Assembly (NCBI GenBank): GCA_963920705.1
Contig: OY987237.1
Span: 5,176,601-5,240,600 of the forward strand
Length of the DNA stretch: 64,000 bases
Direction of reading: 5' to 3'
From: Odiellus spinosus
Taxonomy: Eukaryota > Arthropoda > Arachnida > Opiliones > Phalangiidae
The notes under the pieces are model-generated. The model ran no database searches and was not told the DNA's origin. It was given only the letters and a program-made list of their open reading frames with translations. Shown here in pieces: positions 25,869-40,840 of the stretch. Numbering within the stretch: position 1 is the first letter of the stretch; the number at the start of each line of letters is the position of its first letter. A program made the position numbers and the translations under genes.

Positions 25869-25939
25869 CGCGACTTGTGCTGTTGTACGCACGAAAATAA
25901 CCATGAATGAGATACAAAGAGTGTGCCGCAGCACGTGTC
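25869..25939 (+). repeat. Dispersed repeat X, left part (Polinton target)
   Basis: The sequence around GTGCTGTTGTACGC, ACGAAAATAA and TGAATGAGAT matches 63700-63780. The last six bases, CGTGTC (25934-25939), are the Polinton target duplication. The repeat resumes at 40762. Confidence 0.7.
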
Positions 25940-25969
25940 AGTAAATAAAAAATGAGAGTTGACTATCAC

Positions 25970-26362
25970 GGGGTGGCAGTTTTGATCATGGGTTCTATGG
26001 GGTGGTAATGTTAATTTTCCTTCGACGGACATTTCCCCGGATATTCTCCCGGCAATTGAAAGGCGGTATAGCCGCAGACCTATGCCAGCGACACCCCGCA
26101 AAGGGGTGTGATAAGACTCCGCTGTTTCGGAAGCTCACAGCGGCAGATAAGAAATCGTGAATATCGGGGTGGCAGTTTTGGTCTTGGGTGCTATGGAGTG
26201 GCAATGCTAATTTGGCTTCGACGGGTAAGAGCGTCGATTTAACGTCGGGTAGAGAAGAACGTTCACCCCGTGGAGAGCTACCCTTGGTTCTACGTATAGA
26301 GGGTGTGATAAGACGCCGTAGTTTCGGAAGCTTACAACGGCAGATAAGAAATCTGGAATATC
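25970..26362 (+). repeat. Tandem duplicated module inside the left TIR
   Basis: Block A (GGGGTGGCAGTTTTG...TTCGACGG) occurs at 25970-26028 and 26164-26223. Block B (GGGTGTGATAAGAC...GGCAGATAAGAAATC...ATATC) occurs at 26103-26163 and 26301-26362. The A-B unit is therefore repeated at a spacing of about 195 bp, with diverged spacers. The mirror image lies at about 40339-40731 in the right repeat. Subterminal repeats of this kind can be binding sites for integrase or replication proteins; that role is inference. Confidence 0.85.
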
Positions 26363-26624
26363 ACTAGTTCCAAATGCTTATCAGCGTTCGAGTTCGGTGT
26401 TTATCTTTTGAAATAGAGCTAATAGGGAAAGAAGGCTGCTATGATTAAACGAATTATTTATTCTTAAAGTCTTAAAACAGAGGAGAGGGCGAAAGGGTGT
26501 CATCCCGCGACGTGTGGGTAATTAACCGCGCGCGTTTTAAATTAGAATCGGTAGACTGACGGGAAAACCGAAATATTTCACGTCGGAAATTCTTGTAGGC
26601 TTAACCGGTATTATATTTTAGGCT

Positions 26625-26634
26625 TATATATAAA
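26625..26634 (+). promoter_or_regulatory. TATA-like box inside left TIR
   Basis: TATATATAAA, about 155 bp upstream of the first left-hand gene. Being inside the repeat, it is mirrored at 40067-40076, so each arm would carry the same inward-facing promoter element. Confidence 0.4.
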
Positions 26635-26687
26635 TGAAAAGTGATTGGTGATAAGTGTTTTCAAGAGGTAATGTAAACAAGCGCTAG

Positions 26688-26696
26688 TATAAAAGG
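26688..26696 (+). promoter_or_regulatory. TATA box upstream of the 155-aa gene
   Basis: TATAAAAGG, just inside the TIR boundary and 93 bp before the ATG at 26789. It is a close match to the consensus TATA box and the best promoter candidate for the left-most gene. Confidence 0.55.
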
Positions 26697-26788
26697 TCTC
26701 GACGATGAGTCTGGGTGAACATATTCGCTACGTAAGTAACCGTTTTCACACGGAGAATTAACCGTATTCCGAAAGGCTGTTAATTCTG

Positions 26789-27256
26789 ATGGCGAAGACA
26801 TGTATTCTCGAAGCTAGCTTCCTGCGGGCTAATGGCGAGTACATAATAAAGGAATTGGCGTACTACATCGTGGAAACGGGAGAGAATGGAGTCTTCTCCT
26901 TTAAACCGCCATTTCGGTACAACGAGCTCAGCTACAAAGACAGGCGTTTGAACGGATGGATTACCCGTAATATAGGAGGGATGTTTTGGTGCGACGGAGA
27001 ATATAATTACAAGGACTTCGAAGATATTTTAAGGGGTCTTTTACAAAAAGCAAACGTGTTTTGGACGAAGGGACTCGATAAGTCAATTTTCCTGTCGAGA
27101 TATCTCGGTCATGACGTAGGAAATGCTGAGTCACTTGGCTGCCCTAAATTTACGAGAGAACCGATATTTGATTATTGTAAATACCACAAAAATAACGCCC
27201 AGTGTTGCTCTTTTAAAGCTTATAAATTAAATTTGTGGTTTAAAAAACAAAGTTAA
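26789..27256 (+). CDS. Conserved Polinton-type 155-aa protein, function unknown
   Basis: An intact 155-codon frame from an ATG, with an AATAAA-type polyadenylation signal about 15-30 bp after the stop. It is rich in aromatic residues. Features include IIKELAYYIVETGE (about 20-33), FSFKPPF (about 37-43), the WITRNIGGMFWCDGEYNY segment (about 57-74), KGLDKSIFLSRYLGHDV (about 94-110), and a C-terminal C-x(n)-C-KYH-C cluster (GCPKFT, YCKYH, CCSF), probably zinc-binding. The overall pattern (KELA, PPF, W..N..G..W..G, KG..K, GCP, C..H, C) resembles a short protein that I recall from arthropod mobile elements, possibly with a nuclease-like fold. That recollection is weak and I see no clear catalytic set. 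It lies next to the left TIR and reads inward. Confidence 0.8.
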   Translation: MAKTCILEASFLRANGEYIIKELAYYIVETGENGVFSFKPPFRYNELSYKDRRLNGWITRNIGGMFWCDGEYNYKDFEDILRGLLQKANVFWTKGLDKSIFLSRYLGHDVGNAESLGCPKFTREPIFDYCKYHKNNAQCCSFKAYKLNLWFKKQS

Positions 27257-27484
27257 GTGTTTGTATATAAATAAATAAAATTCGATTCGCACTCTTACTG
27301 ATTTCTCAATTTAGTATAAAATACAAACGAACTTACTTTAAGTGTTTACCAATGATATACTTTGAAAAACTACCCATATATTAGAGTACTTAAGTTATCG
27401 ATCGCGAACGATTTTATTTGGTATTAAAAGGAACGGTATAGATTGGAAATATTATTCTCTCGTTGGTCCCTTCTCATAGTAACT
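27257..27484 (+). other. Intergenic spacer and possible 5' UTR
   Basis: Contains the polyadenylation signals of the preceding gene (AATAAATAAAAT near 27270). A pyrimidine-rich acceptor-like site (TCCCTTCTCATAG) ends at about 27479, just before the next ATG, so the next transcript could have a 5' UTR intron. Confidence 0.35.
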
Positions 27485-28335
27485 ATGGATGCTAAGAACC
27501 CCCTCCCAACCATCTGCAGTTTGTTGTATACCGCCACCCTAGGATTAATATCACAGAACCTTGAATTAACATTCAAGGTTTTTATGATAATAATCCAAAA
27601 ATATCATAAGCGCTGGCATAACGGGATCTACCCCAACGAAGCTACAGGACAAATCAGGGTGGATCTCCCATATAACGCGAATCTGGAGAACGTGCGGACT
27701 AACGGCCTAAAAGGAAGTCAAAAATTTATATCCGTAAGATTATTTTTTAAAAATTACTATGCTAGTTGGGTACTTTAAATTATTATTAAGTTTATTCATT
27801 AATATGTCTTTATCAGGTAAAAAAAATCGATATCCCGGTCGAAGGTGAAGCAGAGGTGGCTGACATCCTGAGTTCTCTAGGGATCGAGGTTAATATCTCC
27901 AAGCAGGGTGTTCCGATTCCCGCCTCCACCCAGTTGTCAATCCCTGCGGCGATACCCATCCCACAACAAGAACCCATTCCGACAACGTCACAGGCTCTGG
28001 ACCTCGTACAACTGTTGAAAGACAACAACGGTGTTCAAACGTCTTCCACGATCACCCCGCAGGTGATATCTCAAATCAGGGAACCAGATGTCCCCAGTCT
28101 CGAGAATTTGATCGTTCCAGACTCTGCTCAGCCTCGCACTGGGGTTTTAGCGTCATCGGGGACCTCAAAAATCCTCGAATCTAATCCTCGGAAAAGATCT
28201 AAATCCGCGGATAAGGTTTTGATTAAAAAGAGAGCCCGGAAATCTAAGCCTGTTATCGAGACGGATGATTTACAGCATTTAATCAGCCTGGAACAGATCT
28301 GCCAATCGATCTTGGATGACCCCGAGGGTGATTAA
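27485..28335 (+). CDS. Spliced Polinton protein of 255 aa, function unknown
   Basis: Two exons, 27485-27733 and 27817-28335. The 83-bp intron has a GTAAGA donor and a TTTATCAG acceptor, and the frame is continuous across it (phase 0). Exon 1 begins MDAKNPLPTICSLL and has a hydrophobic/helical stretch (about 8-32) followed by basic YHKRWHNG. Exon 2 is Pro/Ile/Ser-rich in its middle (PIPASTQLSIPAAIPIPQ) and has a strongly basic bipartite nuclear-signal-like segment, NPRKRSKSADKVLIKKRARK, followed by an acidic end. I do not recognise the family. A DNA-binding or terminal-protein-like role near the polymerase gene is possible but speculative. An AT-rich tail with AATAAA signals follows. Confidence 0.72.
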
Positions 28336-28413
28336 AAAAAAAATAATAATAAAAAAAAAAAAAAAATAAAAAAAATAAAAAATAAAAAAATAAAAAAAAA
28401 AATATATATATAT
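28334..28413 (+). repeat. A-rich low-complexity tract
   Basis: Poly-A with interspersed T, then a short TA array, in the 3' flank of the preceding gene. AATAAA signals follow near 28440-28455. Confidence 0.9.
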
Positions 28414-28530
28414 GTATATTAAAATATTTTCAGTAAAGAATAAACAAAATGAATAAAGTTTTCCTTTAATATCTATCTCTTCTCTCGAGTATATTCGAGA
28501 ATTTCAAGTTTACTGATAAACGAGGGCTGA

Positions 28531-28538
28531 TATATAAA
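28531..28538 (+). promoter_or_regulatory. TATA-like box upstream of polymerase B
   Basis: TATATAAA, 76 bp before the polymerase ATG. A short leader with its own ATG (28564) and a GTAAGT at 28588 lies between, but I could not find an in-frame acceptor to make it a first exon. Confidence 0.45.
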
Positions 28539-28606
28539 CCCACCCAGAATTTTTTGTTTCATTATGGACTACAACATCGTAAAACTAGTAAGTACTTTAT
28601 AAAAAT

Positions 28607-31442
28607 ATGTTTCCCTGTGGGGTTTGCGGCTGTGAATTTAGGAGAAAAGATGTGTTAACGAGACATGTTCGCGAACAACATGAGGGGGTCAAATACACTT
28701 GTGATACATGTGGAAAACTTTTCGCGCGTAAAACACATTTAACGCGACATTCCCGGATACATAGAAATTCTCCTGTTACCCAACCTGTAAACGACGCTTC
28801 GTCAACCGAAAACCTATCTACGTTGCCCGAGAATGGTTCCATGCCGTCCGAGGATGAACCCACACCTCTTGAAAAGGATGCAATTCGCCCTGAGGAGATT
28901 CTCGTCCCTGTCGAGAATGATTTTGCCTCCGGTGCGGAGGAAATGTTAGCCTTAGGGGATGCGATTCTAAGTGCTAGATTCACCCCACCTGATTGTCAGA
29001 CGGACCTTGAACAATTTATGACCCCGCTCATCCCTAGTTTAATCAGATATTTGGAGCAACAGCTTATTAAAAGAAAGGGAATTAAATGGAATATTATAAT
29101 AAGAGTCCGCTATATTAAAGTACTACCCAACGGTGATGAGATGGAGCACATCCCGTACCTACGAAGTAGAACTCAGACTACACTCTTAGCGGATGAACTC
29201 GAAAATCAGATCAACGGGTGCGTTCAAACCATTTCTAATCAGATGCAAGAATTCCAGGAGCTAGGGAGCAATTGGGTGGTAGATAGAATTCTATACCTCC
29301 AAGTGGATGTTATCAAGTATCTACCCCTTGTCGCAGGCTCCTACATAAACACCCCCGAGGGGGTTATAGAAACAAAAAGCGTTCTCAACATAAAATCGAA
29401 CGATGGGATGTGTTTTAAATGGGCCTGCTTAGCCCATCTTCATCCTGTTGAATTGAACGCCAATCGTGTCTCCGGATATAAACAATATGAGAACGAATTA
29501 GACTGTTCGGAAATAAGCTTCCCCTTTTTACTCCACAATATGAAATTAAAAAAATTTGAAGTTAAAAACAATCTCTCGATTAACGTGTTTGCTTGGGAGG
29601 GAGGAGTCTTCCCCCGCTACGTCAGTGAACAGATAGTAAGCGAGGAAAGGGAGATTGATCTCCTGCTTCTGACTGAAAAAGATAAAAAACATTACTGCCT
29701 TATACGAAGCCTAAGTCGACTTCTGTCGCATTTTACCAACCACAACGGAAAAATATATATATGTAGAAGATGCCTACATAGGTATTCCGGGGCAAACGCC
29801 AAAAAAAATCACGCCGAACATAAAAAACATTGCTCCATCCACGCACCCCAACGAATTGAGATGCCCCTCAAAAAGCCTGTTCTATATTTTGAAAAATTCG
29901 AGTGGATGCAGAAGGTAAATTATTTTCTAAATTCTAGTCGGTTTCCCTATCTTACACGCTATTCGTTTAGTGTCCGTTCGTTATTTACGCCGACTTTGAG
30001 AGCATTTTAAACCGTTATCAAACTTGTTCAAATAACTCGACTCTTTCCTCCACCACAAAACTCGCCGAGCATGCCGCCTGTGGGTTCAGCTACGTAGTAA
30101 TCGGACAAGATGGTAAGTCTCTGGCTTCTTGACGTCGACCTAGTTTCTAACCAATTTCACCAGGTAAGCCCCGGCTACCTGTCACGTATCGTGGGATAGA
30201 CGCTGTCGAGGTGTTTCTTGAGAGTTTACTAATGGAGGAGGAAAATATATTGGAGATTCTACAAAAGAACATTCCAATGGACTTAACCCCGAATGAATTA
30301 GAAGCCAGTAGAAAATCAACACACTGCTATATATGTACTGGAATTTTGACGACAGAGGATTACGGGGTGAACGACCATTGCCATCTAACAGATGAGTTTT
30401 AAAATTATTTAGCTTATTAGTTCTGTATTTCATTATCCTTCATTTTAAGTAGTTTTCGGGGTCGCGCTCATAACAGCTGTAACCTCAAGATGCGGATGGA
30501 CAAAAAAATACCTGTTGTTCTTCACAATATGTCCAAGTAAATATCTCCAATCCCATTATAAGTACTGATTATTTTTATAATCTTCACCCTCTCTTTAAAG
30601 CTACGATTCGCATCTGATCCTACAGAAGATGGGTATTTTCAAGGAGCAGAATATAGAGGTCATCCCAAATAACTCCGAACGATATATCTGCATCGGATTT
30701 AGCTGTCTACAATTTATAGATTCAATGAGATTTATGCCAGCCTCGCTCGACACCCTGGTTCAAAATTTGGCTCAGGACGGGATCAACAAATTTAGCATCC
30801 TCGCTGCATCGTATAACCCTGAGCAAGTATGTTTAGCTCTCAAGAAGCTGTCATACCCCTATGACTATATGGACTCGATGGCACGGTTTGAGGAGACTCA
30901 ATTACCACCTAAAGAAGCTTTTTATAATATTCTAACTGACGAGCATATATCCGATGAAAATTACCAACACACTCGGGATGTTTGGGAGAAATTTGAAATA
31001 AAAAATCTAGGAGATCTTCACGACACATACGTTCAAATTGATACGCTACAGTTGGCGTGTGTTTTCGAGGAATTTAGAACCATGTGTTTGGATTATTATC
31101 GCTTAGACCCTGCACATTCATACACAGGACCAGGATTAGCCTGGGAAGCCGCCCTCCTGAAGACAGGTGTAAAATTAGATTTGCTGTTGGATCCGGATAT
31201 ACATCTCTTTATCGGTAGTTTCATTTATATTTATTTTTAATACTTGACATTAATGTTTTCCTGTATTGTAGAACGTGGGATTAGAGGTGGTGTATCTCTG
31301 ATAAGCAATCGATACGCCGAAGCTAATAACAAATATCTCCCCGATCACGACGAATCCAAACCTAGCAACTATATCGTATATTTAGACATAAACAATTTAT
31401 ATGGTAAATATAATAATTGGAAATCTTCAATAATTTCATGCT

Positions 31443-31479
<37 letters not shown>

Positions 31480-32937
31480 AAGGCAAAGTTATGAAGGACT
31501 ACCTCCCGATGAACAACTTCGGGTGGATCGACCCCGATAGTGATCTTCTGGCCTACACACTGAAGTATATTTTGGATCTGCCAGACGATTCACCATATGG
31601 ATTCATCCTAGAGGTTGATTTGGACTACCCGGAGGAGCTACACAACACACATAATTGTTTCCCTCTCGCACCGGAAACGAGGAAAATAACGATCGACATG
31701 TTTTCCCCGACCTACAAATTGCTAATGACGAAGAACGGCCTTCCCTTAAAAGACACACTACCTAAACTCCTACCGACCTTAAATAACAAGTCGAACTACG
31801 TTACACATTATAGGAATCTTAAATATTATATCTCTCAGGGTTTGAAATTAAAAAAAGTACATAGAGTACTATCGTTCGGTCAAGGACCTTGGCTTAGTCC
31901 ATACATTGATTTCAACACGGAAAAGAGGAAGATCGCCACTACAGAATTTCAACGGGATTTTTTTAAGCTGATGAACAACAGGTATAAAGCGCACGGAATT
32001 AATTCAATTATTTTTATTAATCTCTGTAATACATTAGCGTTTTCGGTAAAACGATGGAGAATTTGCGAAATAGAATTGATTTCACCCTCGTGCAGACAGC
32101 TGAAAAAGCAATCAAAAAAGCATCGTCGCCCGCCTTTCAAAAGTTCATTGTGTACCATAATGAATTGGTCGGGATTCAACGAGCTAAATCATTTCTTTAT
32201 CTAAATAGACCCATATTCACGGGCTTCTCGATTTTAGATCTCGCCAAGTTATTTCTGTATAAATTCCACTATGACTTTATCAAGGAGAAATACGGCGGTA
32301 ACGCGGTACTACAGTTTACTGATACGGGTATTAGTTTATCTTTCACACTATTTGCCGCATACTAACTTTTTCATTCATAGATAGCTTAATGTACGATATA
32401 AAAACCGAGGACGTGTACGCCGACTTCAAAAAGCATGGCGATCGGTTTGATTTCTCGGGCTACCCAAAATCGCACAACCTTTTCAGCGACACCAATAAGA
32501 AGGTTCTGGGTAAAATGAAAGACGAGATGAATGGTGGGATTATAAAAGGTGATTTTTGTGGATAAGTTTCTGTATTAAATATGTGCTAATGTATTTTTCT
32601 ATCTCTATTAGAATTCGTCGGACTTCGACCGAAACTTTATTCCATTTTATCTGAGGTGGGGGAGAAGAAGACTGCAAAGGGGATCTGTCGCCGTGTTGTG
32701 AAACGTTCTATCCACCACTCAGATTACCGTGAATGCTTATTCGGTGAGGCTGAGACATCCTGCGTTATGAAAAGGATTGTCAGCGACAAGCACAACCTAT
32801 ACACAGTTAGCCAAAGAAAGAAGGCGCTATCCGCCTGCGATAACAAGAAATACATTCTTCCTGGGGGGATACGAACCCTATCATACGGTCATCGTTTAAT
32901 AAAAAAATTTAACGACCGAGTTAGGGAAATTAAATAA
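28607..32937 (+). CDS. Protein-primed DNA polymerase B with N-terminal C2H2 zinc fingers
   Basis: Replicative polymerase of the Polinton. I read ten exons: 28607-29914, 29971-30112, 30164-30395, 30453-30536, 30601-31214, 31272-31403, 31483-31981, 32038-32327, 32381-32548, 32612-32937. The nine GT-AG introns are 51-79 bp, and the total is 1,264 codons with the frame kept throughout. Two C2H2 fingers (about 4-51) precede an acidic linker, the N-terminal polymerase region, and a CxxC...H..C cluster near 385-410. Exo I reads VIYADFES (about 440-447) and Exo II HNMSNYD (about 584-591). Polymerase motifs: [10 protein letters not shown] (about 829-837); [12 protein letters not shown] (about 1002-1012); C, FTDTDSLMY (about 1096-1104). 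The C-terminal GIRTLSYGH is typical of the family. Introns 4 to 9 fall next to conserved motifs, which fixes the joins well. AATAAA signals follow the stop. Confidence 0.93.
31445..31474 (+). repeat. Poly-T tract in polymerase intron 6
   Basis: Thirty T residues between the donor at 31404 and the AG at 31481-31482. This probably is the polypyrimidine tract, lengthened by slippage; its length may vary between copies. Confidence 0.85.
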
Positions 32938-33001
32938 ATAAAAATAATAAAGTTGGAATAAAAAATAAGTATTGAAGATTGTTGATATGAAATTAAATAA
33001 A
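32938..33001. terminator. Convergent 3' ends of the two Polinton gene sets
   Basis: A 64-bp AT-rich gap between the polymerase stop (+) and the protease stop (-). It carries AATAAA-type polyadenylation signals for the + strand (near 32948 and 32957). The minus-strand ATTCAATAAAATT overlaps the end of the protease region. Confidence 0.6.
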
Positions 33002-33463
33002 TTATAATTTTATTGAATATCTTTTGTACATAAATTCTTTTATCATATTGTCGTTAGAAATTGTGTTCTTAGAAAACCTGGATATAATGTTGTACATTTT
33101 AACACCGCGACATCTATTGAGACTGAAATATATCGAATACCCCCCACAGGTCCAACTCTTATTCCCTTGTAACTGCAAAGAATTATACGAAATCATTCGA
33201 CTATTTTTCTCCGCGAATTCATTAAATTTAAACACGTCGGGAGGGTTTCCATAACTTTCAAAAAACTCTAAGTTTTTCGAGCTAGTAAAATACATAAGAC
33301 ACCAATGTTCTCCGTCCTCGCTAGATGATGCGGTATTTACGATAAAAAGCGATGGGAATGATTGCACGGTTTTTGGTAGAGTATTTGCCGCGAACACACC
33401 ACGAAAAATATCCCTGGTGTATTTATCGTTCTCCAATATGTTCTTTATTTGCGTAGTGTCCAT
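33002..33463 (-). CDS. Adenain-type cysteine protease (virion maturation)
   Basis: A 153-aa protein starting MDTTQIKNIL. An upstream extension of the frame exists but overlaps the major capsid gene and has no ATG that fits the family. It has the adenovirus protease layout: His53 in GEHWCLMYF, acidic Glu69 in FFESYG, Gln99 in LQLQG and Cys106 in SWTCGGYS. The Gln-Cys spacing of 7 equals that in adenain. It is shorter than the about 200-aa adenovirus enzyme but normal for Polintons. The expected role is cleavage of capsid precursors. The ATG is 1 bp past the capsid stop. Confidence 0.9.
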   Translation of the reverse strand: MDTTQIKNILENDKYTRDIFRGVFAANTLPKTVQSFPSLFIVNTASSSEDGEHWCLMYFTSSKNLEFFESYGNPPDVFKFNEFAEKNSRMISYNSLQLQGNKSWTCGGYSIYFSLNRCRGVKMYNIISRFSKNTISNDNMIKEFMYKRYSIKL

Positions 33464-33464
33464 T

Positions 33465-34790
33465 CTAATCAACGACGATAACGGTTCTGTTCTTATCAAT
33501 TTCAATGAGCGACTGAAATTCAGCGTAAACAATTACAGCCACAGTCTCCGTAAGAGGGGCGGCGAATTTTAATTCAAGTCTTAAATTCCCGTTTTTAACC
33601 AAATGGAAATGGGAAGCGTTTGAAGTCAAATCCACTGTGAGATCGAAGCAATAAAGGCAGTTACCGCCGGCAAAATCATCCCGACTTATTTGATTACCCT
33701 CGTCAAGTTGGAACTGCCCGGTCATTAGAGTTAGATTATTATACGCCTGGATAAAACTATTCTGACCGAAATTTGGAGTAAGTGGTTTGTGGGGGACGCT
33801 ACTCCCGTCGATAGACAGCCCAATATGATTTAAATTAAAATTTTGAAAGTTAAACGGACATAACTTTAGTTCCCCTAAGTAGGCGCTTTGCGAGACTAGG
33901 CCGATAACAATTTTCTTGGGGGTTGAGCCTGTGAAAAGGTGATCTTGAACTACGCTCATATTTCCCGTAGGTATAGAGAAAGACGTACACTCTGTTCTAT
34001 TAATTGGATATTTCGCTCTAGCTACCTGCATCACTTTGGCGTGTGCGAGACCGATTTCGGGGATAAGCTTCATTTTTCTGATATACAGCGCGGCGGACTT
34101 AATTTCAACGCGACCCGTTACATCACCGTGTAGACAGAAATCGAAGTTCGGCTTCCCGAAAACGAATTTCAAATCTACTAGATTTAGTAGATATCGCGGT
34201 TGTTGACATAAATCCAGATGCAAACCACCGATCATATCAATTACACCACTCTGGGCAAATTTAGCTCTTTTTTGAAACCCTTCGTTAGCGTTAAAATTAT
34301 CGAAAAATTCCGCTGTATCCCGATAATATAGAGAGCTCGTCAGATGGCTATTTTTAGCCGGATCCCCGTATGTTAACAGCGTTTGAATCATACTTTTATA
34401 TGGATAATTTTGAGCCGAGGGTGTAACGGACTTCTCGTTTAAATACAGGTGAACCTCGGGGAACATACTATGTAGAAATAAATTGGTTGGAGCCAGATTA
34501 TCCATCAGGGTCGCTACAGTACCGTCAGCGGCAAAAACCGTAGCTAGCGGGTGGGAGCCGCTGCTTTTCTTAATTTCCACTTGAACGTGCAGCAGAGTTT
34601 TTGATAGATCGACGTAAGTCTCGGAGTTCCCGTTGATGTGGAATGTTAAAGATGAATTATTCGAAATACTTGATATTGGATTATGCTCAACCCATTCTCC
34701 TGATATGACACTCGTCTGGGTCATAGGTACTTCGAATAGGTTGAGTTCGGAATTTACGCAGCTATTCGAGTGGGGGTGTAGCAAAGCCAT
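33465..34790 (-). CDS. Major capsid protein (double jelly-roll, hexon-like)
   Basis: An intact 441-aa protein. It begins MALLHPHSNSCVNSELNLF and contains the hallmarks of the Polinton capsid family, often annotated in animal genomes as F54H12.2-like: TQTSVISGEWVEHNPIS (about 25-41), NLFLHSMFPEV (about 102-112), AKNSHLTSSLYYRDT, IDMIGGLHLDL, AKYPINRTE, PFNFQNFNLN, EGNQISRDD and VIVYAEFQSLIEID near the C-terminus. This family forms trimeric double-jelly-roll capsomers. It begins 2 bp downstream of the pVI/pX-like gene and is followed after 1 bp by the protease, so the virion genes are packed as in a phage operon. No intron or break seen. Confidence 0.95.
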   Translation of the reverse strand: MALLHPHSNSCVNSELNLFEVPMTQTSVISGEWVEHNPISSISNNSSLTFHINGNSETYVDLSKTLLHVQVEIKKSSGSHPLATVFAADGTVATLMDNLAPTNLFLHSMFPEVHLYLNEKSVTPSAQNYPYKSMIQTLLTYGDPAKNSHLTSSLYYRDTAEFFDNFNANEGFQKRAKFAQSGVIDMIGGLHLDLCQQPRYLLNLVDLKFVFGKPNFDFCLHGDVTGRVEIKSAALYIRKMKLIPEIGLAHAKVMQVARAKYPINRTECTSFSIPTGNMSVVQDHLFTGSTPKKIVIGLVSQSAYLGELKLCPFNFQNFNLNHIGLSIDGSSVPHKPLTPNFGQNSFIQAYNNLTLMTGQFQLDEGNQISRDDFAGGNCLYCFDLTVDLTSNASHFHLVKNGNLRLELKFAAPLTETVAVIVYAEFQSLIEIDKNRTVIVVD

Positions 34791-34792
34791 TT

Positions 34793-35233
34793 CTATCTTG
34801 AAAAAATATCCGAAGGAGAGGGGAATCGTCGAGGTGCTCTCTTCTTCCTAGCCTTCCTTAATGTGGTCGGGGATTTTTTGGCACGCTTCTTTTTAAGTCC
34901 CGAACCTATCATATCTTGGATGGCTTCGGAGGCGGCGGAAATAGTTTCTTTCCCTGCCATTTTCGAGCGGGATCTTAACGACGCTTTCACAGGTATACCA
35001 CTCGCGACATCACCCACGACCTTCCCTCCTGTATTTAATAATTTCTTCCCCAAGTACGATAAACCCTTTTTAAGTAACGGCATAGCGCTGCGAAAGGCGG
35101 ACGCTAAAATGTTACCCAAACCATAACCCCTTTGTACGCTTATGCCCTGATATACAGGAATCGAACCGTATCCGGCCTGATTTAAAAATAAATTTTCATA
35201 TTCCTCCACGGTATGGTATACCGGCGTCCTCAT
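34793..35233 (-). CDS. Small basic amphipathic minor virion protein (pVI/pX-like candidate)
   Basis: 146 aa. The N-terminus, MRTPVYHTVEEYENLF, is followed by a Gly/Tyr-rich part, then an amphipathic helix region (GLGNILASAFRSAMPLLKKG, about 38-57) and a strongly basic C-terminus (LKKKRAKK, RKARKKRAPRR). The combination of membrane-active helix and basic tail is like adenovirus proteins VI and X. The assignment is by composition and position between penton and major capsid genes, not by a motif. It ends 2 bp before the capsid ATG. Confidence 0.75.
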   Translation of the reverse strand: MRTPVYHTVEEYENLFLNQAGYGSIPVYQGISVQRGYGLGNILASAFRSAMPLLKKGLSYLGKKLLNTGGKVVGDVASGIPVKASLRSRSKMAGKETISAASEAIQDMIGSGLKKKRAKKSPTTLRKARKKRAPRRFPSPSDIFSR

Positions 35234-35292
35234 GATGTTGACAGTACGTTTATCTCTATACGAGTGACCGCTGATAGAGGGGTGTCTTACTA

Positions 35293-36060
35293 TTATAGCC
35301 GAAACCAGGATCTCAGAGGTCTGAAATGCAGAGTCGCGTGAATCTTACCACGCTCGAATTGAACAGGGTTTCCGAGGTCATCCATAATATTTATTTCGAT
35401 TGTCTGTATTTGGTGTGACGCCACGGGAATATAGTGCGGTCGTGTAAATATAGCGTCTATCGTCTCGCCGTCCTGTCCCCTAACACTAATTAATCTAAGA
35501 AGTGGAACGTTACGATCCCCCACGATTGTTTTCTCAGCGACGTCTGAGTATACGAACAGGGAATGTAAGGACGCGTTCATGTCAATCGCATACGGTGCCC
35601 TTGCAGAAGATTCTATCCTTATAACCTCCCCCGTATCTTCGCGGGTGAAGCCCAACATATTAGCAATGTGGGTGGGTATGTCCAATTTAACCCCATCTTT
35701 TAGCTCGACGGAAACACGTTTACTGAGCACCTCGTAACTGAACGTCACCCCGTTCCCACTACTAAGTTCAATCATCTCCAGAAGTTCGTGAACCGTGTTA
35801 TAATTTCCAGGTGGAATCTGAATTAACCGCTGAAATTTGAATCCTGGGTCCCCGGGTTTACCTTCAGTCCAACTACGTATGAAGTACTCTTGCTTTACGT
35901 TGTTCCAACTATGGGGGTAGGATAACTCTGAAAGGCCTACTTCGTAGGGTCCCGAAAATTTCACTATTTCCGGGAGATAGGTTCGGAATTTGCTGACGGT
36001 ATTATTGGGGAAGTAATTCATCGATGAATCTGAGGGGAGCGTGATATAGAAACTGCTCAT
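35293..36060 (-). CDS. Minor capsid protein (penton-like single jelly-roll)
   Basis: 255 aa, beginning MSSFYITLPSDSSMNYFPNN, the typical start of Polinton penton proteins. It continues with YEVGLSELSYPHSWNNV (about 39-55), IPPGNYNTVHELL (about 82-94), MLGFTRED, LFVYSDVAEKTIVGD with NVPLLRLISVRG (about 168-195), and a C-terminal GKIHATLHFRPL. The family supplies the pentameric vertices of the capsid. Its ATG overlaps the integrase stop by 4 bp (ATGA). Confidence 0.93.
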   Translation of the reverse strand: MSSFYITLPSDSSMNYFPNNTVSKFRTYLPEIVKFSGPYEVGLSELSYPHSWNNVKQEYFIRSWTEGKPGDPGFKFQRLIQIPPGNYNTVHELLEMIELSSGNGVTFSYEVLSKRVSVELKDGVKLDIPTHIANMLGFTREDTGEVIRIESSARAPYAIDMNASLHSLFVYSDVAEKTIVGDRNVPLLRLISVRGQDGETIDAIFTRPHYIPVASHQIQTIEINIMDDLGNPVQFERGKIHATLHFRPLRSWFRL

Positions 36061-37127
36061 TGTAGATCAACTTCTCTAACCCAATCGTTAAAACGAGAAT
36101 TATAGCCCAGGAACTTTACAAAAAGGTCAACCGTGTTGTCGGGATTTCTTCTTCTCTTTATTACTTTTTCGATCTTAAACGCGAATGTGGCTAGGTCTTT
36201 GTAAACCTTTAGAACCTGCTCGGAGTAAAAAGTTCCTAAAACTGGCTCAGACTTTAAATCCTCGAGCATATATACCGGCGGTTTCCGCGGTAGTCTTTTA
36301 ACCACCCTGAACAGCTCCTCCGAAAAGTTTGGTTGGTACCCCTTTTCGAAAAGCCGCTTACTCCTACTTATTCGAACAATATCCCCCAACTCCAGCGTGT
36401 AGGGAATTGGCATAGTCGGTCTTTGATCTCCGTATAGTATTTCCCAAACTCTTTTGGTGTTTTGTGACGTCACTTCTACCGGTTTGCATTTGATAGCGGA
36501 ATGGTATGAATTGTTGTAGCTAGAAACCAAATCTTGAAGGACGTCTGTGTATTTTAATGTACCCTTACCCGTAAAATATCGATACATTTTTGTTTGTATT
36601 GTACGATTCCATCTCTCGATCACGGCACACTTAATTTCCGAGTGATGGGTATAGAATTTTATTCCCCGTTGTTTCAACTCTTTTTGCACTGCTTGGGCTA
36701 TAAACTCGGATCCATGATCTGTATTCAAAGAGGCGGGGCTTCTCCCCCGATCGAATATTTGGACCAGCGCCTTGGCGATCGTCTCACCCCTCTTGTTATT
36801 GACGGCTTCGATGAACCCCATTTTACTAAAAACGTCAATACAGGATAAAAGATAGCGTTTCCCCTCGTTATGTTTGGAAATACGTTGCACGTCGATTAAA
36901 TCGGCCTGCCAGAGGGCGTCTACACCACTAGATATAGTTTTATTCCGTTGAAACCGTATTCTTGCGGGCTTATGTAAACCGTATGCATCTTGGTGGGCCA
37001 GATATTCTCTGACGTTTTTTATCGTAACATCAAGCCCCCTTTCTCGGGCCGAGCGATATAGCCCTAAAACACTGGCGTACCCTCCAGGATCTGCGACATT
37101 ATAATAAATACCGTCTAATTTATCCAT
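36057..37127 (-). CDS. Polinton integrase (retrovirus-type DDE with chromodomain)
   Basis: 356 aa. The N-terminal part (DPGGYASVLGLYRSA, YLAHQDAYGLHKPAR) is typical of Polinton integrases. The rve catalytic core has Asp76 in WQADLID, Asp137 in NTDHGSEF and Glu171 in VIERWNRT, with 33 residues between the last two. A beta-rich linker (LELGDIVRISRSKR) is followed by a C-terminal chromodomain (about 315-356: FKIEKVIKRRR, LFVKFLGYNSRFNDWV). It would cut and join the element ends and generate the 6-bp duplication seen here. The chromodomain may steer it to modified chromatin. It overlaps the penton start by 4 bp and the upstream small membrane gene by 8 bp. Confidence 0.95.
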   Translation of the reverse strand: MDKLDGIYYNVADPGGYASVLGLYRSARERGLDVTIKNVREYLAHQDAYGLHKPARIRFQRNKTISSGVDALWQADLIDVQRISKHNEGKRYLLSCIDVFSKMGFIEAVNNKRGETIAKALVQIFDRGRSPASLNTDHGSEFIAQAVQKELKQRGIKFYTHHSEIKCAVIERWNRTIQTKMYRYFTGKGTLKYTDVLQDLVSSYNNSYHSAIKCKPVEVTSQNTKRVWEILYGDQRPTMPIPYTLELGDIVRISRSKRLFEKGYQPNFSEELFRVVKRLPRKPPVYMLEDLKSEPVLGTFYSEQVLKVYKDLATFAFKIEKVIKRRRNPDNTVDLFVKFLGYNSRFNDWVREVDLQ

Positions 37128-37314
37128 TTAAAGTGAAATTGTTATTACCGGTCTCGCGAGGGTGTGAGAAGTACTCAAATAAAAAGTCGGATACTTGTAT
37201 TATAATTATTACTAATAATATTAATAGAGCTGTAAGAGCTTTTGGGGATTTTCTAAAAAAGTTGAGAAGTTGTGTTAACGTAGAAGCGGTCAAAACTTCC
37301 GCGCAACCTTCCAT
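37120..37314 (-). CDS. Small single-pass membrane protein candidate (64 aa)
   Basis: It starts MEGCAEVLTASTLTQ and has one hydrophobic helix, ALTALLILLVIIIIQVSDFL (about 25-44), followed by a short tail. It overlaps the integrase start by 8 bp. A longer upstream frame exists but would overlap the previous gene and lacks an ATG. No family recognised; small membrane proteins are common in related virus-like elements. Confidence 0.5.
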   Translation of the reverse strand: MEGCAEVLTASTLTQLLNFFRKSPKALTALLILLVIIIIQVSDFLFEYFSHPRETGNNNFTLNG

Positions 37315-37379
37315 GTTAGTGTCTACAATTGAAATAAATGATATCGGTGGAGGGTAAAATGTTTTATTTGCTAAAAATA

Positions 37380-37973
37380 TTATACATAAACCCAAGTCTT
37401 CGATCTTGATGGTGGAGTGTTTAAAATAATCGAATTAATAAACGATTTTCTCGCCGGGTTTTTTATGATCTTTTTTGGGACATTATATTTATTTAACATC
37501 TTGTAAAACATCTCGAAACCTTCAGGGTTCGTTACACCGCTGCTTTTCCTAACTCCATCGTAAATTAAATCAACTACATTCGTTCCAGTTACAGGATGCC
37601 CGGAAATTTCCAGTTCACCCAGTTTGGACCATGTTAAATCCTTTTGCCTCTCGATCCAGTTGTATAGCGTTATCCCGTCATTAACCAGGCTACTGGGTAA
37701 TCCAGTAGCAATCTCAGCAATCCAGGATGTCTTTTTCTCTGACGGCTTTTCCGTCGCTGTCTTCTCCACGGTTTTTCGATTGGAATTTAGATGTCTTTGG
37801 AGAGTTTGGTTATATAGCGCTAATTTGTCTGACCCTGAAATTGTGTTATTCTCTAGGATATTTTTCATATCCCTATCAAGACTAGGTGCTTCGAGCTCCT
37901 CCCTTTTTTCTTCCGAAGAGTTTTTTAACCGCTTAAGAACATCCTCCGAAACCAATAACATTTTTCTAGCCAT
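37380..37973 (-). CDS. Conserved Polinton protein of 197 aa, likely virion-associated
   Basis: Begins MARKMLLVSEDVLKRL. A first part has a helical, charged segment ending with MKNILENNTISGSDKLALYN (about 36-55) and LQRHLNSN. A Lys/Thr linker leads to a second domain with ITLYNWIERQ, GHPVTGTNVVDLIYDGVRK (about 126-144), and KYNVPKKIIKNPARK near the end. I recall this two-part layout (LLV start, M..IL, K..LYN, then the NVVDLI segment) from Polintons of many animals, where it has no firm function. Its location in the late block suggests a structural role. Confidence 0.72.
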   Translation of the reverse strand: MARKMLLVSEDVLKRLKNSSEEKREELEAPSLDRDMKNILENNTISGSDKLALYNQTLQRHLNSNRKTVEKTATEKPSEKKTSWIAEIATGLPSSLVNDGITLYNWIERQKDLTWSKLGELEISGHPVTGTNVVDLIYDGVRKSSGVTNPEGFEMFYKMLNKYNVPKKIIKNPARKSFINSIILNTPPSRSKTWVYV

Positions 37974-38004
37974 TACTGTGTTTTAATTATATTTATATAT
38001 TTCG

Positions 38005-38352
38005 CTAGATGGCCCTGCTTATAGCCGCACCTGTTACAGATCCTAATACCGAGAGCAGGGGTGCCAATAACAGAGGTAAAAAACCACCTTTTTGTACTAG
38101 AATTTTTTTCTTTTTAGAAACTGGAATATTTTCTGAAATACTTCGAATAAATTCGCGATGTTTAGCTAGCCGTTTCTTCTCTGCGACTGATAATTTGACA
38201 TTCCCGCTTAGTATATTTAAACAACATTCCGTCAAAGCTAGAATCTCATCCCTTTTGGCTAGCTGTATTATGGCTCGACGCTGTTTGGTGTTACATACGC
38301 ATAAAAACTTTAAAAACTCGATATTGTGCTTCAATTTTTCTGATTTATTCAT
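38005..38352 (-). CDS. Conserved Polinton protein with GGFLPLLL tail (115 aa)
   Basis: Begins MNKSEKLKHNIEFLKFLCVC. The middle is basic and helical (KRDEILALTECCLNILSGNV, about 33-52). It ends in a Lys-rich stretch and a hydrophobic C-terminus, QKGGFLPLLLAPLLSVLGSV. This helix-basic-KGGFLPLLL pattern recurs in animal Polintons. Function unproven; a core or membrane-associated minor virion protein is plausible. The ATG lies 3 bp after the ATPase stop. Confidence 0.75.
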   Translation of the reverse strand: MNKSEKLKHNIEFLKFLCVCNTKQRRAIIQLAKRDEILALTECCLNILSGNVKLSVAEKKRLAKHREFIRSISENIPVSKKKKILVQKGGFLPLLLAPLLSVLGSVTGAAISRAI

Positions 38353-38355
38353 GTC

Positions 38356-39050
38356 TCATTTAGGTAGAAACACAGCCGCTTCCTCTCCTGGTATGATACC
38401 GGTCCGCAGTCTATGTTCATCTGAGGTATTTGGTTTCAGATCGATGAATAAATACCCATATTTTTTAGCTACAGCCTGTTGGAAGGCGTCTATAACGTAT
38501 TTAGTATTTGTCGGCGATATTTGCTTGGCTAGGGTATAAATACTCGATTTGTCTCTAGGTGTTGCAAAGAGACATATATAGTGGGAGTTTAAATTCAGGG
38601 TTCTTATTTCTTTCCCCGGGTAGTATAAGTTTTGCATTAAAATTAAAACACTCGTATTTCGATGATGTGAGCCACGTATGAATAAATTTGTAATGCTTTT
38701 ATTATTGGCTACTTCACAAAGCAGATCGTCGATAATAACTAAATTTCTAGTCCCAGAGTTCAAATCATTATCATCGAGCAAACCCTCGTGAAATTCTACC
38801 GAAGGAACCTTTTCATGGATCCAATTAAATAACTTAGGTTGAAATTCTGTATAGCAATAAATTATTCTTTGTGGACAGGGATTTATAGTTACTTCCTTAT
38901 GCGCTATAAGATTCGCTACGAAATAGCTTTTCCCGCTCTGAGTACCTGAAATTAGATAAATTGTACGTTTCTATGCGGTTGGTTGTAAATTTATTTGTCC
39001 ATACTTCCTGCGATCAGACCGGTGAATGGGTGACTCAGACTTAGGTCCAT
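38356..39050 (-). CDS. FtsK/HerA-type packaging ATPase, one intron
   Basis: A genome-packaging motor subunit of 211 aa from two exons, 39050-39005 and 38945-38356. The 59-bp intron has a GTATGG donor and an AATTTCAG acceptor. Exon 1 encodes MDLSLSHPFTGLIAG. The intron lies just before the rest of the P-loop, whose joined core is AGSTQSGKS (about 14-22). Walker B is NLVIIDDLL with Asp88 and Asp89. The segment VLILMQNLYYPGKEIRTLN is the conserved polar region with its Gln sensor. Without splicing, the frame would lack a P-loop, which supports the intron. The position between two conserved late genes fits. Confidence 0.9.
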
Positions 39051-39141
39051 GATTGTAATGAGACCATCTCCGTAGGTACGATAGGTTTTATATTAAAATT
39101 AAAAATTAGAGACTCGGTTCGAAAATGAAGGATTGATTTTA
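39051..39141 (-). promoter_or_regulatory. Spacer with TATA box for the ATPase gene
   Basis: On the minus strand TATAAAA occurs at 39092-39086, about 36 bp before the ATPase ATG. The 3' signal of the upstream gene (AATAAA at about 39141-39136) overlaps its stop codon. Confidence 0.4.
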
Positions 39142-39910
39142 TTAGGGTGTAACATCTTCAGTTTTCAATAGTAATTTTTTGGAGATACAGGCAATATTAC
39201 AAAGTATATATTCGCAGAATTGTTCACCCAGAAATGTATTCGATACGAATTCATCCGTGATCTCGGAGTAGCTCATCTTACCCATGGCCGTTGCGTAGTT
39301 CATTTCCACCCGGGTATTCCAGTCGTACATCACGCAGTCGTGTTTTGTTTGGGATGGGTGGTCGGTTTCACACCCGTAGCACATTGCGGTGATTGTTTCC
39401 GATAACTGCCCGAGTACGCTTTTTTTAATTTTATCATAGACCCGTTTGACTTCTTCCAGGAAGGTTATAACCTCGTCGAATTTCTCCAAGAAAGATCGCC
39501 ATAGGAGTTTTGAAATGGCAAACCCAACTCTTGTGGGGTATAGTTCGCCGTAATTTGCCCCGCTACCAGGTCGCATCTCTCGTATGTTGAGAATTCTGAT
39601 GTCTCGAAATTCGGTTAACTCAACTCGCTTCGTTTCAGACCCCTCGAAGAACCAAGCAGGCGGGGCAATTTTCTGATCCTCTAGGAATGACGTGATATCC
39701 GCTCGAGCTCGGTATAGCTCCAGGAATTCTGCCTCGGTCAACGTTATTAGGGAACTTCCATTCAGACATCCTAGTTGAATTTCGCAGTTCGGCGTTACCC
39801 CAATTCCTTTGAGGGGTGAGATTGGAAATATTTTGGCGGTGAGCCTAAATAGAAAATACCGTTATTCCAAGTCCGGCTATCGTCTAATAAGCTACTTTAT
39901 ATACATACAT
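39142..39910 (-). CDS. Polinton Cys/His protein (about 234 aa) with an apparently split start codon
   Basis: The main exon, 39844-39142, is open but has no ATG near its start. A strong acceptor (TTTTCTATTTAG) ends at 39845. A strong donor (GTATGT at 39908) follows AT at 39910-39909. Joining them gives AT+G, an ATG in frame with LTAKIFPISPLKGIG, removing a 64-bp intron like others in the element. The protein has a beta-like N-terminal part, a helical segment (LTEAEFLELYRARADITSFL), IREMRPGSGANYGELYPTRV, and a Cys/His cluster MCYGCETDHPSQTKHDC that looks zinc-binding. I recall similar C-x2-C...SQ..H.C proteins from Polintons and other mobile elements. Function unknown. It is the right-most gene, next to the TIR. 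Confidence 0.7.
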
Positions 39911-39964
39911 TTTCAATCCTTTCGCAGTCGATGAGAGAATAAGTAAAAATTTAATTGTATATTT

Positions 39965-39972
39965 CTTTTATA
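39965..39972 (-). promoter_or_regulatory. TATA box for the right-most gene
   Basis: Minus-strand TATAAAAG, about 55 bp before the proposed split start codon at 39910. It matches the TATAAAAGG just inside the left TIR, so each arm has one right after the repeat ends. Confidence 0.55.
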
Positions 39973-40021
39973 CTACCGGTTGTTTACTTTTCAATTTAAA
40001 AAGCCCCTCCTACACGTAACT

Positions 40022-40761
40022 GCTTGTTTACATTACCTCTTGAAAACACTTATCACTCACTTTTCATTTATATATAAGCCTAAAATATAATACCGGTTAA
40101 GCCTACAAGAATTTCCGACGTGAAATATTTCGGTTTTCCCGTCAGTCTACCGATTCTAATTTAAAACGCGCGCGGTTAATTACCCACACGTCGCGGGATG
40201 ACACCCTTTCGCCCTCTCCTCTGTTTTAAGACTTTAAGAATAAATAATTCGTTTAATCATAGCAGCCTTCTTTCCCTATTAGCTCTATTTCAAAAGATAA
40301 ACACCGAACTCGAACGCTGATAAGCATTTGGAACTAGTGATATTCCAGATTTCTTATCTGCCGTTGTAAGCTTCCGAAACTACGGCGTCTTATCACACCC
40401 TCTATACGTAGAACCAAGGGTAGCTCTCCACGGGGTGAACGTTCTTCTCTACCCGACGTTAAATCGACGCTCTTACCCGTCGAAGCCAAATTAGCATTGC
40501 CACTCCATAGCACCCAAGACCAAAACTGCCACCCCGATATTCACGATTTCTTATCTGCCGCTGTGAGCTTCCGAAACAGCGGAGTCTTATCACACCCCTT
40601 TGCGGGGTGTCGCTGGCATAGGTCTGCGGCTATACCGCCTTTCAATTGCCGGGAGAATATCCGGGGAAATGTCCGTCGAAGGAAAATTAACATTACCACC
40701 CCATAGAACCCATGATCAAAACTGCCACCCCGTGATAGTCAACTCTCATTTTTTATTTACT
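40022..40761 (-). repeat. Polinton right terminal inverted repeat (740 bp)
   Basis: Reverse complement of 25940-26682. It ends ATTTACT at 40761 against CGTGTC (40762-40767). It contains the mirrored duplicated module (about 40339-40731) and the TATA-like box at 40067-40076. Confidence 0.95.
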
Positions 40762-40840
40762 CGTGTCGCGGGGATTGGTGAGACTTCTTTTGATTAGTCG
40801 GAGGTTCTCCTTTTATGTGTGAATTCGAAAATCAGGTATC
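40762..40840 (+). repeat. Dispersed repeat X, right part
   Basis: Resumes the repeat interrupted by the Polinton. CTTCTTTTGATTAGTCGGAG and GGTTCTC match 63809-63832. It begins with the second copy of the target duplication. Confidence 0.7.

What the first reader, a model, noticed from the sequence alone, without database searches (positions are those of the whole stretch)
25940..40761. Complete, apparently intact Polinton/adintovirus-like element with full virion gene set
Both TIRs, an exact 6-bp target duplication (CGTGTC), and intact polymerase, integrase, ATPase, protease, major and minor capsid genes are present. The TIRs show only one visible 3-bp difference. Intact elements with a complete morphogenesis module are candidates for endogenous viruses still able to produce particles.
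Basis: partly seen in the sequence, partly recalled or inferred. Interest (0 to 1): 0.9.

Follow-up and report, generated by a model that had tools for sequence, protein, structure and literature searches.

The report
Young, complete virus-like Polinton element
This stretch is a complete, recently inserted copy of a virus-like mobile element (a Polinton) present in many near-identical copies in this genome, and some of its relatives there are mirror-image versions that look like integrated defective virus genomes.

Summary
TIRs of 743 and 740 nt are identical except for one 3-nt length difference; an exact 6-bp target duplication flanks a gap-free 14,822-bp element. The MCP models as a double jelly roll, the minor capsid protein as a penton; the integrase matches rve. 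Polymerase and ATPase are split by short GT-AG introns, not visibly broken. Polymerase, ATPase and protease rest on motifs, position and (protease, last polymerase exon) selection: no profile reached its cut-off. Ten copies in this genome are open in five mapped genes; nine have both ends with matching duplications. The six closest copies differ at 5-7 of 8,860 sampled bases. Capsid genes show Ka/Ks 0.06-0.20 against an older subfamily. Particles and transcripts could not be tested. This is what protein-primed linear replication with template switching would leave.

The parts
25934..25939 (.). target site duplication, left (CGTGTC)
   Evidence: sequence
25940..26682 (+). left TIR, 743 nt, with internal repeats of about 60 nt spaced 196-197 nt
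26687..26695 (+). TATA-like GTATAAAAG just inside the left TIR; the right end has one too
   Evidence: function inferred
26762..27256 (+). terminal gene 'O', 164-aa frame, unknown function, found in many Polintons of this genome
   Evidence: no Pfam hit
27488..28335 (+). two-exon gene of unknown function; candidate GT-AG intron 27734-27816
   Evidence: start and splicing inferred
28592..30007 (+). polymerase N-terminal exon frame: two C2H2 zinc fingers, then a region read by eye as the OTU-like domain
   Evidence: PF00096 E=1.1e-6; OTU reading recalled and by eye
29990..32937 (+). [quoted passage not shown] introns 30113-30163, 30396-30452, 30537-30600, 31215-31271, 31404-31482, 31982-32037, 32328-32380, 32549-32611 (all GT-AG)
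   Evidence: motifs by eye; Pfam negative per exon
33002..33463 (-). adenain-like cysteine protease, 153 aa
   Evidence: motif (GEHW / ESYG / W-TCGGYS) by eye; Pfam and PDB negative; Ka/Ks
33465..34790 (-). major capsid protein, double jelly roll, 441 aa
34793..35233 (-). small basic protein between MCP and penton, possibly pVI/core-like (label recalled)
35293..36060 (-). minor capsid protein, penton-base fold, 255 aa
36057..37127 (-). retroviral-type (rve) integrase, weak C-terminal chromodomain
   Evidence: PF00665 E=8.7e-14, Chromo E=0.005 under cut-off
37120..37434 (-). small frame with a hydrophobic segment (by eye)
37380..37973 (-). unknown gene, 197 aa
38005..38352 (-). unknown gene, 115 aa
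38356..39050 (-). FtsK/HerA/A32-type packaging ATPase, two exons; 59-nt intron 38946-39004 in the Walker A region
   Evidence: Pox_A32 E=0.017 under cut-off; intron read by eye from sequence printed
39142..39861 (-). terminal gene 'Q': PC4-like domain plus C-terminal Cys/His cluster
   Evidence: PF02229 E=2.7e-4, under cut-off, here; over cut-off in relatives P0122 and P0124
39965..39973 (-). TATA-like GTATAAAAG inside the right TIR's inner edge
   Evidence: function inferred
40022..40761 (-). right TIR, 740 nt
40762..40767 (.). target site duplication, right (CGTGTC)
   Evidence: sequence

Best explanation
A young, complete Polinton (Maverick), that is an integrated double-jelly-roll DNA virus, of an intron-bearing subfamily that amplified very recently in this genome. 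Inferred cycle: the terminal genes are transcribed inward from TATA boxes next to each TIR; polymerase and ATPase mRNAs are spliced; a free linear copy is replicated from both ends by the protein-primed polymerase with strand displacement; it is packaged or stays in the nucleus; the rve integrase then inserts it with a 6-bp duplication. Shown here: structure, target duplications, copy number, recency, purifying selection on capsid genes. Inferred: splicing, replication mode, packaging. Occasional template switching during linear replication would explain the symmetric double-ended relatives and the change found in both TIRs of the same copies.
Against: No RNA, particle or polymorphism data. 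The polymerase exons and the protease reach no Pfam or PDB model in the searches made, and the window is not among the PF03175 matches listed (77 of 571 candidates scored). Against the intermediate subfamily the protease shows nonsynonymous excess (L024 8:0, L025 and L026 12:1), which I read as decay after insertion. Several sister copies carry stops or deletions, and some of the five reference loci have stops of their own.
Confidence: 0.85

Rival explanations
1. It moves only inside the germline as a transposon, and the capsid genes are carried along or used for something other than infectious particles.
For: Many near-identical copies in one genome at different sites; no particle or transmission evidence available.
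Against: MCP Ka/Ks (0.06-0.09) is about as low as that of the last polymerase exon (0.05-0.06); penton is somewhat higher at 0.14-0.20. MCP, penton and a packaging-type ATPase are kept beside integrase and polymerase.
Confidence: 0.3
2. It is a dead fossil: polymerase or ATPase are broken and the gaps between frames are lesions, not introns.
For: Frames of polymerase and ATPase are interrupted; no transcript was seen; no Pfam hit on the polymerase exons.
Against: All eight delimited polymerase gaps are 51-79 nt with GT...AG, and the motifs continue across them by eye. For the three gaps that I could compare in three relatives about 15% diverged, GT is seen in 7 of 9 donor positions (2 not aligned) and AG in 9 of 9. 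The mapped polymerase exon is identical and open in 12 rows including the window.
Confidence: 0.06
3. The copies and mirror-image elements are assembly or segmental-duplication artefacts.
For: Some copies do share flanks (a C11 pair and C17 copies) and one pair of ends lies on two contigs (C169 and C9). No read data.
Against: 17 copies have 17 different target duplications. The window has no gap bases. The same symmetric spacing recurs on different contigs (e.g. 9,825 on C2, C11, C232), though without flank sequence I cannot exclude segmental duplication for those three.
Confidence: 0.05
4. The symmetric elements are independent insertions of two copies head to head, not double-ended genomes.
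For: For the B-type and other symmetric elements I have gene positions only, not sequence or TSDs. At least two of the 71 pairs (Q pairs near C17:1.69 Mb and on C150) look like neighbouring elements.
Against: Independent insertions would give as many same-strand as opposite-strand pairs; observed 1 against 71. The C5 copy has left-type TIRs at both outer ends inside one TSD. Several pairs share scores and frame lengths found in no other listed row.
Confidence: 0.12

Closest known systems
Intact vertebrate Mavericks/Polintons (PMC8097293, passages seen)
   Same: TIRs, 6-bp TSD, two gene modules, PolB, integrase, ATPase, capsid genes, purifying selection, intact copies in a genome
   Different: They are reported intronless (134 elements); here polymerase, ATPase and one more gene have short introns. 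The polymerase frame begins with two C2H2 zinc fingers.
Adintoviruses (definition in passages of PMC11071296; Drosophila-associated adintoviruses of 13.3-14.6 kb in passages of PMC8363768)
   Same: size, PolB with integrase, protease, ATPase, capsid genes
   Different: OTU-like domain and reciprocal hexon match not shown here; chromodomain only below cut-off.
Spodoptera Sf Mavericks (PMC5803895, passages)
   Same: two distinct lineages in one genome, 52% identical on average there, about 55% for the MCP here
   Different: They carry a parvovirus-like capsid gene and no homologue of the double-jelly-roll (PY) protein; here the MCP is double jelly roll.
Adenovirus light intermediate / incomplete particles carrying left-end DNA (PMC5033970 passages); symmetric adenovirus DNA is recalled, not read
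   Same: linear genome with terminal protein and ITRs; partial genomes built from one end
   Different: Here symmetric arrangements are integrated in host DNA and both end types occur.

Membership tests
Polinton/Maverick (Polintoviricetes) | TIRs of hundreds of bp and 6-bp TSD | tested here: met
[quoted passage not shown]
   palm motifs and order by eye, Ka/Ks 0.05-0.06 on last exon, one exon 42-45% identical to uninterrupted frames of 1,121-1,320 codons; Pfam negative per exon; exons not joined
Polinton/Maverick (Polintoviricetes) | retroviral-type rve integrase | tested here: met
   PF00665 E=8.7e-14 over cut-off
Polinton/Maverick (Polintoviricetes) | double-jelly-roll MCP | tested here: met
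   relative P0015 hits PF21738 over cut-off
Polinton/Maverick (Polintoviricetes) | single-jelly-roll penton minor capsid | tested here: met
   fold match
Polinton/Maverick (Polintoviricetes) | FtsK/HerA/A32 packaging ATPase | tested here: inconclusive
   Pox_A32 E=0.017, below cut-off; Walker A continues across a 59-nt intron (by eye)
Polinton/Maverick (Polintoviricetes) | adenain/Ulp1-type cysteine protease | tested here: inconclusive
   no Pfam or PDB match; catalytic pattern by eye only
Adintoviridae | N-terminal OTU-like domain on PolB | tested here: inconclusive
   Pfam shows no OTU in 28592-30007; region looks like it by eye
Adintoviridae | hexon reciprocally found by BLASTp with reference adintoviruses | not tested
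   reference sequences not fetched
Adintoviridae | integrase with C-terminal chromodomain | tested here: inconclusive
   Chromo E=0.005, 17.2 bits against cut-off 25.1

The most novel reading that the evidence does not exclude
Polintons in this genome regularly generate symmetric, double-ended genomes, mirror images built from either end. These are integrated and in part amplified as their own families (for example PC4-to-PC4 arrangements at 11 places, 10 of them with spacing 8.66-8.90 kb, and double-polymerase arrangements at 16 places, 15 of them with spacing 5.5-6.4 kb): endogenous counterparts of defective-interfering genomes of linear protein-primed viruses. The same end-copying, caught in the double-left copy of this very subfamily, could explain how the terminal genes O and Q came to sit at opposite ends of the core in lineages A and B.
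Probability: 0.5. Interest if true: 0.78.

Novelty: new variant of a known kind. Interest (0 to 1): 0.6.

Why it matters
Polinton virions have long been inferred but, by two 2021 abstracts seen in listings (PMC7805220, PMC8097293), had not been observed. A genome with about ten almost identical complete copies is a good place to look for transcripts and particles. Integrated double-ended genomes, if confirmed, would be a sequence record of how these elements replicate: free, linear, primed from both ends. That would also raise whether they act as satellites or interfering genomes of the complete virus.

Tried and rejected
Packaging-signal idea: I first thought only the O-gene end is duplicated. 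The polymerase and PC4 maps show the other end is duplicated as well (6 Q+P+P-Q- clusters), so there is no end bias to argue from.

Sequence searches that found nothing useful: the IMG/VR scan with the MCP confirmed no relative. PDB by sequence gave nothing significant for the protease, one polymerase exon, or the penton and MCP profiles. PF03175 over the genome listed other polymerase families, not the window (capped list). Papers: no paper holds F54H12.2. Searches with 'palindromic' (15 of 41 listed), with several palindrome and defective words (15 of 126 listed) and with intron words (6 listed, 2 listed) showed nothing on the point by title and abstract start; I opened none of these for that question except PMC8097293 (passages). 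Starrett 2021 and Jeong 2023 are not held. Host species not identified.

The empty-site search in the genome did not complete. In one search the protease row for L017 is an alignment artefact of a deletion and is not used. 'Outer TIR homogenised, inner edge not', my first reading (notebook), was too simple: see the full report.

Rows dropped: the maps used 118 of the 150 O rows listed (32 weak or split rows left untyped). One search repeats the count with all 150 and gives the same pair and cluster-type numbers (244 instead of 220 clusters). Pairs of the shorter element class were left out of the TSD count.
Full report
Checking the observation. CGTGTC abuts both ends. The window has no gap bases. 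As a control I took the lineage-A copies for which I had both ends on one contig: 17 of 17 carry an exact 6-bp duplication, all different. An 18th pairing (C169 with C9) was made because its flanks match, so it proves nothing and may be a chimera. Mismatched pairings among the 18 agree in 0 of 306 cases.

Introns rather than lesions. The polymerase is open in pieces. Eight gaps of 51-79 nt begin with GT and end with AG; I chose their edges by eye so that the reading continues, so GT-AG is partly by selection. Read by eye, with motif names recalled, three fall in or beside palm motifs A (NNLYG), B (NNS/VFGKTMEN) and C (TDT/DS), the others at other points of the gene. A 59-nt gap of the same kind lies in the ATPase Walker A region (38946-39004), and an 83-nt one in the gene at 27488-28335. 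Three of the eight could be compared in three relatives with 14.7% exon divergence: GT is kept in 7 of 9 donor positions (2 not aligned) and AG in 9 of 9. Intron divergence there (15.7-18.2%) is only a little above exon divergence; in two closer relatives introns diverge clearly more (4.1-4.7% against 0.6-1.6%). Intact vertebrate Mavericks are described as intronless (passages of PMC8097293).

Copies and age. MCP search: 94 rows (92 of 928 candidates scored), 33 of them at 87-100% identity (lineage A, this element) and 61 at 49-57% (lineage B); 13 rows are full length, 99-100% identical and without stops. Ten copies including the window are open over the full query in all five mapped proteins, of which the polymerase is one exon; nine of the ten have both ends on one contig. 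A 4,377-nt stretch around the MCP is identical in the window and four other copies. Over three sampled pieces the six closest copies differ from the window at 5-7 of 8,860 nt (0.056-0.079%). Four of these differences are private to the window within 27363-27425. With a recalled insect rate near 3.5e-9 per site and generation (the host is not known to be an insect) this is of the order of 10^5 generations or less. Other copies carry stops, deletions or insertions.

Selection. Against the older A subfamily (Ks 0.23-0.34 in capsid and protease genes, 0.68-0.72 in the last polymerase exon), Ka/Ks is 0.06-0.09 for MCP (five loci), 0.14-0.20 for penton (five), 0.07-0.13 for the small basic protein (five), 0.10-0.15 for protease (three) and 0.05-0.06 for the last polymerase exon (three). 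The five loci share most of the changes, so this is nearly one comparison, and some of them have stops of their own. It says the lineage passed through working capsid genes before the burst. Against it: the intermediate subfamily shows nonsynonymous excess in the protease (8:0 and 12:1), and pairwise Ka/Ks is a crude tool. In that subfamily MCP Ks is 0.10-0.11 while neighbouring genes are at 0-0.06, which suggests mosaic genomes.

TIR behaviour. In 15 copies with a left and a right end (one of them the C169/C9 pairing) the left TIR is longer in 13 and the right is always 740 nt. So this asymmetry is inherited through transposition. In contrast a substitution at TIR position 320 (26259 and 40442) is concordant at both ends in 10 of 10 copies compared, so it must have passed from one end to the other. 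But a change at position 341 (26280) is shared by the left ends of two copies and absent from their right ends. Exchange between the ends is therefore occasional, not a rule of each cycle.

Symmetric elements. One copy of this subfamily (C5:3410593-3423799, TSD CTCACC) has left-type TIRs at both ends. Next to its integrase lies left-end sequence equal to window 27426-28066 at 99.5%, and gene O occurs at both ends in opposite orientation. The right end has therefore been replaced by an inverted copy of about 2.1 kb or more of the left end; part of that arm I inferred from the O match only, and an unrelated insert splits it. I then mapped five genes over the genome (O, polymerase exon P, MCP M, integrase I, PC4 gene Q). 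Adjacent same-gene pairs 1.2-14 kb apart are on opposite strands in 71 cases and on the same strand in 1 (O 10:1, P 26:0, I 10:0, Q 23:0, M 2:0, repeated with all O rows). The lists are capped (for P, 150 rows listed of 188 matches), copies of one palindrome are counted separately, and one element can count for several genes, so this is not 71 events; at least two Q pairs look like neighbouring elements. 55 of 244 clusters hold an inverted pair. Both end types occur: Q+P+P-Q- six times; inverted O or I pairs in 12 lineage-B clusters and in the C5 copy (a 14th cluster, on C150, looks like two neighbouring elements). Canonical orders are O+ P+ M- I- Q- in 20 clusters (type A) and O+ I+ M+ P- Q- in 19 (type B), so the core is inverted relative to the end genes between the lineages.

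Mechanism. Template switching of a strand-displacing, protein-primed polymerase on a linear free genome would give such products. Adenovirus light particles with left-end DNA are the nearest parallel that I read (passages of PMC5033970). What is shown is the gene arrangement and, for C5 only, TIRs and TSD. Arms and ends of the B-type elements were not sequenced here.

Verdict. The element itself is a new member with unusual introns. The symmetric derivatives are the part most worth following.

Noticed in passing
27363-27425: Four substitutions private to the window copy clustered in 63 nt between genes; 11 of 11 compared copies agree with each other there.
   Followed up: partly
31445-31474: A run of 30 T inside a polymerase intron next to motif A, a likely spot for assembly or slippage errors.
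   Followed up: no
25969-26362 and mirror 40339-40732: Each TIR contains internal direct repeats of about 60 nt spaced 196-197 nt at 87-89% identity.
   Followed up: no
L022, L024-L027, L033: Intermediate subfamily has MCP Ks of 0.10-0.11 but 0-0.06 in neighbouring genes, suggesting recombinant (mosaic) genomes.
   Followed up: no
G000, many contigs: PF03175 finds many further Polinton-type polymerases, a good number with uninterrupted frames of about 1,270-1,300 codons (161 matches, 77 of 571 candidates scored): a Polinton-rich genome.
   Followed up: no
L073 and G000:C5:3411437-3412181: An unrelated insert splits the left arm of the double-left copy; window bases 26777-26784 seem to lie on both sides, as an 8-bp target duplication of a hAT-like element would give (inference).
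   Followed up: partly
L061 and L064; L066 and L076; L070 and L071: Some copies share flanks, so they are likely segmental duplicates rather than separate insertions.
   Followed up: partly
G000, several contigs: A class of shorter elements shares the TIR at about 94% but has another interior and no MCP match; part of it is withheld and I left it alone.
   Followed up: no
28592-28800: Two C2H2 zinc fingers open the same frame that leads into the polymerase; whether they bind the TIR is untested.
   Followed up: no
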